DNA from: Candidatus Nitrosopumilus limneticus
Lineage (GTDB): Archaea > Thermoproteota > Nitrososphaeria > Nitrososphaerales > Nitrosopumilaceae
Assembly (NCBI GenBank): GCA_022117465.1
Contig: JAHCGZ010000002.1
Location: 186,001 to 250,000 of the forward strand
DNA length: 64,000 bases
Direction of reading: 5' to 3'
This document shows, in pieces, positions 33,758 through 36,815 of this stretch (the stretch's first letter is position 1; every line of letters starts with the position of its first letter). Both the position numbers and the translations under genes were made by a program. The notes under the pieces are model-generated. The model did not search any database. It was not told the origin of the DNA and saw only the letters and a list, made by a program, of their open reading frames with translations.

Positions 33758-34351
33758 TTGAAAGTAGATTGTAATGAAGAAGGTATTAAAAAAACACATC
33801 AAATATTTCAGAAAGGGGGAATAATAGTATTCCCAACAGATACCGTATACGGTATAGGATGTGATCCATATAATCAAAATTCAATAAAAAAAATTTATGA
33901 AATTAAATCAAGAGAAAAAGTAAAATCATTACCAATATTAGCATACTCACTGGATATTGTAAAAAAAATAGTAGTAATTGATGAATTTACTGAAAAGATA
34001 ATACAAAAAAATTGGCCAGGACCACTAACGTTGATTTTAGAATTAACAGATGAAAAATTAAAAAAATCATTAAACTTACAAAATAAAATTGCAGTAAGAA
34101 TTCCAGATTCTAAATGTACTTTAAAATTGTTAGAAAAGTGTAAATTAATAGTAGGAACTAGTGCAAATATTTCTGGAAATTCATCATATACAAATCCAGA
34201 TGAATGTATAAAAAATATTAAAAATTATGATCTATTTCTTAATGGAGGAACAATTAGAAGTAAAGGAGAATCAACAATAATTGAAGTAGAAAATAAAACT
34301 ATCAAAATCATTAGAGAAGGTGCATTGAAAATGGAGGACATTTTGATATGA
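33758..34351 (+). CDS. sua5: Threonylcarbamoyl-AMP synthase, Sua5/YrdC family
   Basis: A 197-residue YrdC-domain protein that makes threonylcarbamoyl-AMP from threonine, bicarbonate and ATP, the donor for t6A37 in ANN-decoding tRNAs. It has FPTDTVYGIGCDPYNQ near residue 25, the KSREKVKSLPIL segment, NWPGPLTLIL and SANISGNSSYTNPDEC. It lacks the C-terminal Sua5 domain, so it is the short form. It starts at a TTG. It overlaps the THUMP gene at ATGA and lies near a Cgi121-like gene, giving a local t6A cluster. Confidence 0.9.
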   Translation: MKVDCNEEGIKKTHQIFQKGGIIVFPTDTVYGIGCDPYNQNSIKKIYEIKSREKVKSLPILAYSLDIVKKIVVIDEFTEKIIQKNWPGPLTLILELTDEKLKKSLNLQNKIAVRIPDSKCTLKLLEKCKLIVGTSANISGNSSYTNPDECIKNIKNYDLFLNGGTIRSKGESTIIEVENKTIKIIREGALKMEDILI

Positions 34352-34872
34352 TAAATTTGATAGTTACATGTGCTAGAAATTTGGAAGGGGAAACAGAGGA
34401 TGAATTAATAGATATTTTAGATGAATTAGGGGATTCAGACGTCAAAATTTCAGTAAGTAATATGTCAGGAATAATTACAGTACAAACAAAATTAGATCCA
34501 ATTGACGTAGTTAGAAAAATGAAAAAAATGTTGTTAGATGAACCATGGAGTATTAGATATTGTTTAAGGGTAATACCAATTCAAAAAACAATTGAAACAA
34601 AAATAGATGAAATTGAAAAAATAATTTTAAGTATGTCAGATAAAATTGAAGAAAAAGAATCATATAAAATATTAATTGAAAAAAGAAATTCAGACATTTC
34701 AAGTAAAGAAATAATTACAAAAGTAGCAAATAAAATTAAAAATAAAGTCTCATTAGATTTTCCAGATAAAGTAATTTTAATTGAAATATTAGGAATAGTT
34801 ACAGGAATTTCAGTATTGAAAAATTCAGACATACTAAGTCTTGAGAAAACTAAACGTAGTATGTCAGATTAG
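34348..34872 (+). CDS. THUMP-domain protein, Tan1/THUMPD1-like
   Basis: A 174-residue protein with a THUMP RNA-binding domain and no catalytic domain: LIVTCARNLEGETEDELIDI, SNMSGIITVQTKLDPIDVVR, and ILIEKRNSDISSKEIITKVA with PDKVILIEILGIVTGISVL. This layout matches Tan1, the adaptor that delivers tRNA to the ac4C acetyltransferase. Known archaeal relatives bind tRNA. It is coupled to sua5 (ATGA overlap) and overlaps the convergent ubiquitin-fold/Cgi121 gene by 9 bases. Confidence 0.75.
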   Translation: MINLIVTCARNLEGETEDELIDILDELGDSDVKISVSNMSGIITVQTKLDPIDVVRKMKKMLLDEPWSIRYCLRVIPIQKTIETKIDEIEKIILSMSDKIEEKESYKILIEKRNSDISSKEIITKVANKIKNKVSLDFPDKVILIEILGIVTGISVLKNSDILSLEKTKRSMSD

Positions 34873-35637
34873 AATAGAAGCTTTTTCTACTAAAATATCT
34901 TCTAAAGGAGTTTCAGAATACACGGAATCAATATGCTTTTTTGAAATATTGAAATGTTTTTTTAAAAACAAATCATTATTTTTTAAAAATAAATTTATAC
35001 ATAAAGGAGATAATTCAGAATATAATAAATTAAAAGAGTTTTTATTTCCAATAGCAATTAAAATAAAATTAGTAAGAGGTTTTATTCCAACAGATGAAAT
35101 TGCATTAGAAATTTGTAAAGTCACTGCAAACCTCATTAGGATATCAGTTTCAATTTTATTTGAAAGTAAAATATTATTTTTTTCAGCTTCAATAGAGAGT
35201 GTTAAAATTTTTTTTAAATGAGATACGCTACAAATAAAATTACTAGATACCACTTGAAATTTAATTTTTGGGTATTTTATTCTCAAAGCATCAATAAATT
35301 TTACGTCAGTTGTTTTTTGACCACGAATTTCAATAATTTGAATAGATTTTTTATGAATTTCAAAAATTAATTTTTTAGATGAACCTCCATGGATTACAGG
35401 AATAACACTTACAATATCACCATCACGCACAATAGTATCTTTTCCATTCATCGCAGAAGAATCACAACCATTGATAGCAATTAAAATATTTTCAATATCA
35501 ATATCAGAAGTATTTACAGGTTTAATTTTTAATAATAATTCAAGTAATTGATTAATTGAAATATTAGAATTATCAATTTTTAATTCATCAGAATTAAAAG
35601 ATTTTCTGGCTCCACCAATTAATTTTATAGTTATCAT
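34864..35637 (-). CDS. Ubiquitin-fold (MoaD/ThiS-like) domain fused to a Cgi121-like domain
   Basis: A 257-residue two-part protein. Residues 1-88 look like a MoaD/ThiS/SAMP beta-grasp domain: MITIKLIGGARKSF, ILIAINGCDSSAMNGKDTIV, RDGDIVSVIPVIHGGSS, where an HGG sits at the position of the usual C-terminal GG but is followed by more protein. Residues 90-257 resemble Cgi121, the KEOPS subunit that holds the tRNA acceptor end (SVSHLKKILTLSIEAEKNN, ILMRFAVTLQISNAISSVGI, FILIAIGN). It lies next to sua5, so a t6A role is an inference. A simple ThiS-type sulphur carrier is the alternative. Confidence 0.62.
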   Translation of the reverse strand: MITIKLIGGARKSFNSDELKIDNSNISINQLLELLLKIKPVNTSDIDIENILIAINGCDSSAMNGKDTIVRDGDIVSVIPVIHGGSSKKLIFEIHKKSIQIIEIRGQKTTDVKFIDALRIKYPKIKFQVVSSNFICSVSHLKKILTLSIEAEKNNILLSNKIETDILMRFAVTLQISNAISSVGIKPLTNFILIAIGNKNSFNLLYSELSPLCINLFLKNNDLFLKKHFNISKKHIDSVYSETPLEDILVEKASILI

Positions 35638-35679: not shown

Positions 35680-36030
35680 TTATTCGGTTTTTTTATCATC
35701 TGATGTAGTTGAATGTAAAATAGATTCAATTTCTTCATTAGTTAGAGTAATTTCTTCATCATTTTCAGAGTCATCATCTAATTCGTCATGCTCTAATGAT
35801 GTTTCTTCAATATCAGAAGAATCGTAACTACTTTTATTTTGCTTAAATTCTTCTTCACGAATTTGTTTTTTTATGTATCGTGTGATATATCCTGCGATTT
35901 TATTTTTTAGTCCTTTAGAATGTATGATAGTAAGTTGATTTAGTACTATTTTGTTTTCAGCAAAGTCTTCACCAAATTTTGATTTATTTTCATCCATTAC
36001 TTCAAATGAGAGACGCTTTATTCTATCCAC
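35680..36030 (-). CDS. rps17e: 30S ribosomal protein S17e with long acidic tail
   Basis: Residues 1-60 match S17e: MDRIKRLSFEVMDENKSKFG, then ENKIVLNQLTIIHSKGLKNK and IAGYITRYIKK. The following 55 residues are Glu/Asp/Ser-rich (EHDELDDDSENDEEITLTNE) and have no equivalent in ordinary archaeal S17e of about 65 residues. The tail may serve in assembly or partner binding. It lies alone between the ubiquitin-fold gene and tatD. Confidence 0.82.
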   Translation of the reverse strand: MDRIKRLSFEVMDENKSKFGEDFAENKIVLNQLTIIHSKGLKNKIAGYITRYIKKQIREEEFKQNKSSYDSSDIEETSLEHDELDDDSENDEEITLTNEEIESILHSTTSDDKKTE

Positions 36031-36060: not shown

Positions 36061-36815
36061 CTATATTCCAAGAAAACGTTTTGTATTTTCTTCTAACAGT
36101 AATGACATTTCATCAAATGTTTTTTCTAGAATTTTAGAAGCACAAAAAATCACACTTGGAATAAAGCTGATCTGACCACATTTCATTTCAAAACATCGAG
36201 AAAATCTAACAGGTCCATCAGTTTCAACAAGAATTTTTGATTCACTAGTTTTAGACAATAAAATTTGTTTATCATTTGCATATATCATTACAGGTCCAAA
36301 AGATACAAAAAAATCCATATCCATTGCTTTTTGAAGTTGTTTTTTACTACCATCAAACCAATGCAATAAAGCATGTTTAGTATCATATGAAGTCATAATT
36401 TCAAAAATATCATCAAGACTTTTTCTGGAATGAATTGATACTGGTTTATGAAACTTTTCTGCAGATGAAAGTAATGATTCAAAACATGAATTTGCCTTTT
36501 AGTTTCATTATTATTTTTACAGTATGTAGGATCTAATCCAATTTCTCCAATACCTGAAATATTATTTTGATTTAATTCTATTAAATCATTAATTTTTTCA
36601 AGATCATCATTAGCAAATTCAGGATGAATTCCAATAAAAGGTAAAACTAGATTACTTTTTTTTGACAATAATAAAGTTTCTAATGAATTCTCGACATTCA
36701 TAGAAACACAACATGCTTTAATTTTAAGAGATTTCATTTGAGTTAGTATAAAATTAATTTCGGGAAGATATGCAGAATCTGATAAATGAATGTGAGAATC
36801 AAATGACCAAGACAT
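36061..36815 (-). pseudogene. tatD: TatD-family metal-dependent hydrolase split by a one-base frameshift
   Basis: The 5-prime part (36815 down to about 36485) encodes DSHIHLSD, GIHPEFANDD and IGEIGLDPTYCKN. The frame then breaks at AAAA (36481-36484 on the plus strand). Adding one base there continues as FESLLSSAEKFHKPVSIHSR, then LLHWFDG, ILVETDGPVRFSR and the C-terminus RFLGI, giving about 251 residues, the normal TatD length. All metal ligands (HxH, E, H, H, D) exist across the two frames. A sequencing error, a very recent mutation or slippage are all possible. A CTATATT box lies about 26 bases before the ATG. Confidence 0.8.

What the first reader, a model, noticed from the sequence alone, without database searches (positions are those of the whole stretch)
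33758..35637. Ubiquitin-fold/Cgi121 fusion beside Sua5 and a Tan1-like protein
The protein at 34864-35637 joins a MoaD/ThiS/SAMP-like beta-grasp domain, with a GG-type motif now internal (IPVIHGG), to a domain resembling the KEOPS subunit Cgi121. Next door are sua5, which makes the substrate of KEOPS, and a Tan1-like tRNA-binding protein. A sulphur-carrier or ubiquitin-like domain built into a t6A factor would tie two tRNA-modification systems together. The internal GG would need cleavage to act as a conjugating tail, or the domain may be a docking module.
Basis: partly seen in the sequence, partly recalled or inferred. Interest (0 to 1): 0.68.

Follow-up and report, generated by a model that had tools for sequence, protein, structure and literature searches.

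The report
Ubiquitin-like head on KEOPS subunit Cgi121
A marine ammonia-oxidising archaeon makes a tRNA-modification protein (Cgi121) with a ubiquitin-like protein attached to its front; this fusion was already reported in 2010, and the evidence here suggests it is a precursor that a protease cuts to release the ubiquitin-like part.

Summary
Window 34864-35637 (-) encodes 257 aa: a Urm1/SAMP/MoaD-like beta-grasp domain (1-85, ending HGG) joined to Cgi121 (about 89-257). It is the only cgi121 found in the genome, and Kae1, Bud32 and Pcc1 are present. The fusion is not new: Makarova & Koonin (2010) reported it in all Thaumarchaea then sequenced. Evidence added here: (1) In sister families the same operon is S17e > Ubl > cgi121, with Ubl and Cgi121 usually separate and the Ubl ending at or just after HGG. 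The tree needs 4-5 fused/split changes. (2) HGG is kept in 104 of 105 fused proteins. In Nitrosopumilaceae, Gly84 and Gly85 show at least 40 and 30 codon changes and no amino-acid change; the next two residues change 22 and 27 times. (3) The structure model is two confident domains with the HGGS hinge as its only low-confidence segment. (4) Eight of 8 Nitrosopumilaceae genomes have no detected free Ubl; the only other one heads the E1 enzyme, also with an internal GG. (5) Sixty of 61 genomes encode a JAMM protease. Most likely it is a precursor cut at Gly85|Ser86. Cleavage is inferred, not shown; an uncleaved docking module is the main rival.

The parts
34864..35637 (-). Ubl-Cgi121 fusion gene, 257 aa
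   Evidence: ORF; Pfam ThiS and CGI-121; NF011465 141 bits
35383..35637 (-). Ubiquitin-like (Urm1/SAMP/MoaD-type) beta-grasp domain, residues 1-85
   Evidence: ThiS 35.2 bits; Foldseek to Urm1, SAMP1, MoaD, probability 1.00
35380..35391 (-). HGGS hinge, residues 83-86; proposed cut after Gly85
   Evidence: Only segment with pLDDT below 50; HGG invariant in 96 distinct CDS, at least 40 and 30 codon changes at the two Gly with no amino-acid change
34867..35373 (-). Cgi121 domain, residues 89-257
   Evidence: CGI-121 Pfam match; Foldseek to yeast, human and M. jannaschii Cgi121; tRNA-contact residues Q175, I176, G184 invariant
35680..36030 (-). Ribosomal protein S17e, upstream gene of the same probable operon (42-base gap)
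   Evidence: PF00833 59.5 bits; order kept in relatives
33758..34351 (+). sua5 (threonylcarbamoyl-AMP synthase), convergent neighbour
   Evidence: PF01300 178 bits; TIGR00057 168 bits
34348..34872 (+). THUMP-domain protein, possibly Tan1-like; overlaps sua5 by 4 bases and the end of the fusion by 9
   Evidence: PF02926 29.8 bits

Best explanation
The protein is this Nitrosopumilaceae archaeon's KEOPS subunit Cgi121, translated with a Urm1/SAMP-type ubiquitin-like protein as its N-terminal head. Shown: the two domains, the conservation of the fusion, the invariant GG in a disordered hinge, separate-gene forms in relatives, and the lack of a detected free Ubl in the genomes examined. Inferred: a JAMM metalloprotease cuts after Gly85, releasing a Ubl with a free HGG tail for the E1 enzyme (as protein modifier or sulphur carrier, possibly for the NcsA-type tRNA thiolase) and a separate Cgi121 that joins Bud32/Kae1/Pcc1 and binds the tRNA CCA end for t6A synthesis. 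This would work like Ub-ribosomal-protein precursors, M. tuberculosis MoaX and D. radiodurans MoaD-MoaE.
For: Domains. Single cgi121, and complete KEOPS (Kae1, Bud32, Pcc1). HGG kept in 96 of 96 distinct Nitrosopumilaceae coding sequences and in all 8 fused g151 loci, with at least 40 and 30 codon changes at Gly84 and Gly85, no amino-acid change, and freely varying residues just after. Hinge 83-86 is the only low-confidence segment of a 91-pLDDT model. The same operon exists unfused, with the Ubl ending exactly at HGG in 22 of 40 unfused loci and within 9 residues of it in the rest; one split pair (L051) is in frame, separated by a single stop. The tree needs 4-5 fused/split changes. No free Ubl detected in 8 of 8 family genomes; the other Ubl heads the E1 with invariant AVAGG followed by S or A. 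JAMM in 60 of 61 family genomes, one resembling desampylase. NcsA-like enzyme present, MoaE absent. Precedents: MoaX is cut Gly82|Ser83; DrJAMM cuts MoaD-MoaE, and HvJAMM1 cuts linear SAMP1 fusions.
Against: No peptide, gel or protease assay was available; cleavage is inferred. JAMM proteases also act on conjugates, so their presence is not specific. The E1 would likewise be cut if its own internal GG is processed, which is untested. GG could be kept because an intact Ubl docks its tail into a partner. One lineage (L062) has the fusion with GG lost, so the fusion can exist without a usable tail, although it is one MAG and a long branch. ThiS-model searches may miss a divergent free Ubl.
Confidence: 0.6

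Rival explanations
1. The fusion is never cut; the Ubl is a docking or regulatory module of KEOPS, for example recruiting an E1, a JAMM protein or the ribosome to KEOPS.
For: The fusion is fixed across Nitrosopumilaceae; both domains fold confidently in one chain; one fused lineage (L062) has lost GG yet keeps the Ubl domain.
Against: It does not explain an invariant GG in a disordered hinge, nor the repeated fused/split changes, nor genus g12 where the Ubl and cgi121 are not even neighbours.
Confidence: 0.25
2. The uncut fusion acts in cis: the Ubl domain helps KEOPS assembly or tRNA delivery, and GG is only a flexible linker.
For: Glycine is a common linker residue; the hinge is predicted to be disordered.
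Against: A plain linker would drift: the residues immediately after GG change 22 and 27 times while His83, Gly84 and Gly85 never change. Separate Ubls in relatives end at the same HGG.
Confidence: 0.1
3. A chance or artefactual fusion, or a vestigial Ubl with no function.
For: Fusion/fission occurs repeatedly within one genus.
Against: The fusion is found throughout the Nitrosopumilaceae sampled and in 80 contigs of separate genomes; strong purifying selection over the Ubl.
Confidence: 0.02

Closest known systems
Ubl-Cgi121 fusion of Thaumarchaea (Makarova & Koonin 2010, PMC2948915)
   Same: Same fusion, same clade, same S17 neighbour; this is the same object.
   Different: The paper suggested SAMPylation control of KEOPS or coupled function, and says the fusion is in all thaumarchaea then known; here the sister families are mostly unfused, and GG selection, hinge disorder and the Ubl repertoire are tested.
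MoaX (MoaD-MoaE fusion) of M. tuberculosis (PMC4326299)
   Same: Beta-grasp head with internal GG followed by Ser, joined to a second functional domain; Gly81 needed for cleavage and both Gly for function.
   Different: Partner is MoaE (molybdopterin synthase), not Cgi121; no MoaE was found in this genome.
DR2607 MoaD-MoaE cut by DrJAMM (PMC8832034)
   Same: Linear Ubl fusion matured by a JAMM protease.
   Different: Bacterial, Moco pathway; cleavage was demonstrated there.
Archaeal Cgi121 (M. jannaschii MJ0187; PDB 3ENH, 7KJT)
   Same: Same fold and same invariant Q71, I72 and G80 equivalents.
   Different: No Ubl head; M. jannaschii K56 and M60 are mostly N and T here.
Urm1/SAMP1 (2K9X, 4WWM, 2L52, 3PO0)
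   Same: Fold and HGG/GG tail.
   Different: Free proteins with a terminal GG; here GG is internal.

Membership tests
Cgi121 / TPRKB (KEOPS subunit) | CGI-121 sequence profile and fold | tested here: met
   PF08617 25.9 bits (cut-off 25); NF011465 141 bits (cut-off 40); Foldseek to 4ww5, 3enh, 7kjt at probability 1.00
Cgi121 / TPRKB (KEOPS subunit) | tRNA CCA-contact residues (M. jannaschii K56, M60, Q71, I72, G80) | tested here: inconclusive
   Q71, I72 and G80 equivalents invariant in 47 sequences; K56 is N/K and M60 mostly T
Cgi121 / TPRKB (KEOPS subunit) | Other KEOPS subunits in the same genome | tested here: met
   Kae1 and Bud32; two Pcc1-like
Cgi121 / TPRKB (KEOPS subunit) | Binding to Bud32 and support of t6A synthesis | not testable with these tools
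   Needs biochemistry
Urm1/SAMP/MoaD/ThiS ubiquitin-like proteins | Beta-grasp fold | tested here: met
   ThiS and Urm1 Pfam models over cut-off; Foldseek to Urm1, SAMP1, MoaD
Urm1/SAMP/MoaD/ThiS ubiquitin-like proteins | C-terminal Gly-Gly free for activation by E1 | tested here: inconclusive
   GG invariant but internal; terminal in 22 of 40 unfused relatives
Urm1/SAMP/MoaD/ThiS ubiquitin-like proteins | Cognate E1 in the genome | tested here: met
   One E1 of ThiF/MoeB/UbaA type
JAMM-processed Ubl precursor (as MoaD-MoaE of D. radiodurans) | JAMM protease in the genome | tested here: met
   Two in this genome, both with the H-S-H-P...D motif; 60 of 61 family genomes have at least one
JAMM-processed Ubl precursor (as MoaD-MoaE of D. 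radiodurans) | Demonstrated cleavage after GG | not testable with these tools
   Needs proteomics or a protease assay

The most novel reading that the evidence does not exclude
Nitrosopumilaceae, among the most abundant archaea in the ocean, make their ubiquitin-like proteins only as N-terminal heads of other proteins (Cgi121 and the E1 enzyme itself), to be cut out by JAMM proteases. This would be an archaeal counterpart of eukaryotic ubiquitin precursors fused to ribosomal proteins, with the Ubl gene still sitting in a ribosomal-protein operon.
Probability: 0.45. Interest if true: 0.7.

Novelty: already known. Interest (0 to 1): 0.42.

Why it matters
The fusion has been known since 2010 without a function, and no experimental follow-up turned up in the paper searches made here. 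The split and fused forms, the selection on GG and the lack of a detected free Ubl turn it into a yes/no question that one proteomics search can answer. If cleaved, Nitrosopumilaceae would carry a ubiquitin-like system that exists only in precursor form, bearing on how ubiquitin precursors arose. If not cleaved, KEOPS has an unexplained permanent ubiquitin-like domain.

Tried and rejected
(1) A second, intact cgi121 in the genome: none found. (2) A molybdopterin role for the Ubl: no MoaE. (3) Coupling of two tRNA systems as the main reason for the fusion: weakened by genus g12, where the Ubl stays with S17e and cgi121 is elsewhere. (4) Self-splicing (intein-like) cleavage: no conserved nucleophile at the residue after GG. 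(5) A fusion conserved throughout Nitrososphaerota: not so; Nitrososphaeraceae-like family f3 is mostly split and family f2 is split in all six loci read. (6) A first codon-count script used a faulty pattern and read only 8 loci; it was replaced.

Full report
WHAT IS THERE. Window 34864-35637 (-) encodes a 257-aa protein. Residues 5-85 match the ThiS family and 121-199 match CGI-121, both above Pfam's cut-offs; NCBIfam names it 'KEOPS complex subunit Cgi121' at 141 bits. An AlphaFold2 model from 47 family sequences has mean pLDDT 91; the only segment below 50 is residues 83-86, H-G-G-S. Against the PDB the model matches yeast, human and M. jannaschii Cgi121, and Urm1, SAMP1 and MoaD, all at probability 1.00. 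No second cgi121 was found. Kae1 and Bud32 sit together elsewhere, and two Pcc1-like genes are present, so KEOPS is complete.

ALREADY KNOWN. [quoted passage not shown] Here too S17e lies 42 bases upstream on the same strand, and the order histone / tatD / S17e / fusion with convergent THUMP / sua5 is kept across the 80 Nitrosopumilaceae loci, apart from loci cut by contig ends and some without a detected sua5. No later experimental work on the fusion turned up in the paper library, which lacks most subscription journals.

DISTRIBUTION. Of 300 genomes sampled across the phylum, 207 have a CGI-121 match; the long open frames of a fusion are concentrated in family f1 (Nitrosopumilaceae by the names of related records), while most others are about 190 aa. 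In family f2 (six loci read) Ubl and cgi121 are separate overlapping genes. In family f3 they are usually separate neighbours, but fused in eight loci of genus g151 and split in three others of that genus. In L051 a single in-frame stop separates them. In genus g12 the Ubl stays behind S17e and cgi121 is elsewhere. A tree of five neighbouring genes needs 5 changes between fused and split, at least 4 on well-supported branches (a quick tree, with long branches at L062/L063).

THE GG MOTIF. HGG is present in all 96 distinct Nitrosopumilaceae coding sequences and all 8 fused g151 loci; it is lost in one fused protein, L062, which reads LHC. By parsimony on a tree that leaves these columns out, Gly84 and Gly85 carry at least 40 and 30 codon changes with no amino-acid change, while residues 86 and 87 change 22 and 27 times. 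In unfused relatives the Ubl ends exactly at HGG in 22 of 40 loci and carries 1-9 further residues in the rest. An invariant motif in a disordered hinge is what a processing and conjugation site would look like.

THE REST OF THE SYSTEM. This genome has one E1, itself headed by a Ubl whose AVAGG is internal and invariant in all 15 E1 fusions read, followed by S or A (the Ubl-E1 fusion is also in PMC2948915). Eight of eight Nitrosopumilaceae genomes have exactly these two Ubl domains and no free one, by the ThiS model. Two JAMM proteins with the H-S-H-P...D motif are present; one is closest to haloarchaeal desampylase, below that model's cut-off, and 60 of 61 family genomes have at least one JAMM. 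An NcsA-like thiolase is present and MoaE is absent, so a freed Ubl could serve tRNA thiolation or protein modification but not molybdopterin synthase.

MECHANISM. Most likely (0.6) the protein is a precursor cut after Gly85 to give a usable Ubl and a normal Cgi121. Shown: architecture, conservation, selection on GG, interchange of fused and split forms, presence of the enzymes. Inferred: the cut, the protease, and the fate of the Ubl. Precedents are M. tuberculosis MoaX, cut Gly82|Ser83 by an unidentified protease, D. radiodurans MoaD-MoaE, cut by a JAMM, and HvJAMM1 acting on linear SAMP1 fusions; the abstract of PMC6043591 describes Caldiarchaeum Rpn11 processing a ubiquitin precursor. The docking-module rival (0.25) cannot be excluded without proteomics. 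On the Cgi121 side the equivalents of M. jannaschii Q71, I72 and G80 are invariant, while K56 and M60 are mostly N and T.

VERDICT. Observation confirmed; interpretation partly supported; the object itself is already known. The added evidence makes the old puzzle testable.

Noticed in passing
window 36061-36815 (-): The TatD-like DNase is broken into two overlapping ORFs in different frames; 47 of 47 Nitrosopumilaceae relatives in which both halves were found carry it as one ORF, so this is a frameshift in this genome or its assembly.
   Followed up: partly
G000:C1:277521-277736 and G000:C6:12465-12665: Two Pcc1-like genes, possibly a Pcc1/Pcc2 pair like the fifth archaeal KEOPS subunit described in PMC9889334.
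   Followed up: no
L041-L046 (family f2): The free Ubl ends HGG-CL or HGG-CI where its last codons overlap the upstream end of the cgi121 reading frame; Cgi121 in several of these carries a long insert rich in E and K or G.
   Followed up: partly
L062:688-1611 (+): A separate Ubl-Cgi121 fusion in another family (f67) in which GG is lost (LHC); a natural test of whether the head can serve without a tail.
   Followed up: partly
L063:2775-3632 (+): A Ubl fused after its HGG to a phosphoribosyltransferase domain, directly upstream of cgi121.
   Followed up: no
L032:457-1776 (-) and L208-L219: Ubl-E1 fusions with invariant ILPAVAGG followed by S or A and a variable, sometimes poly-Ser/Asn linker (L216).
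   Followed up: partly
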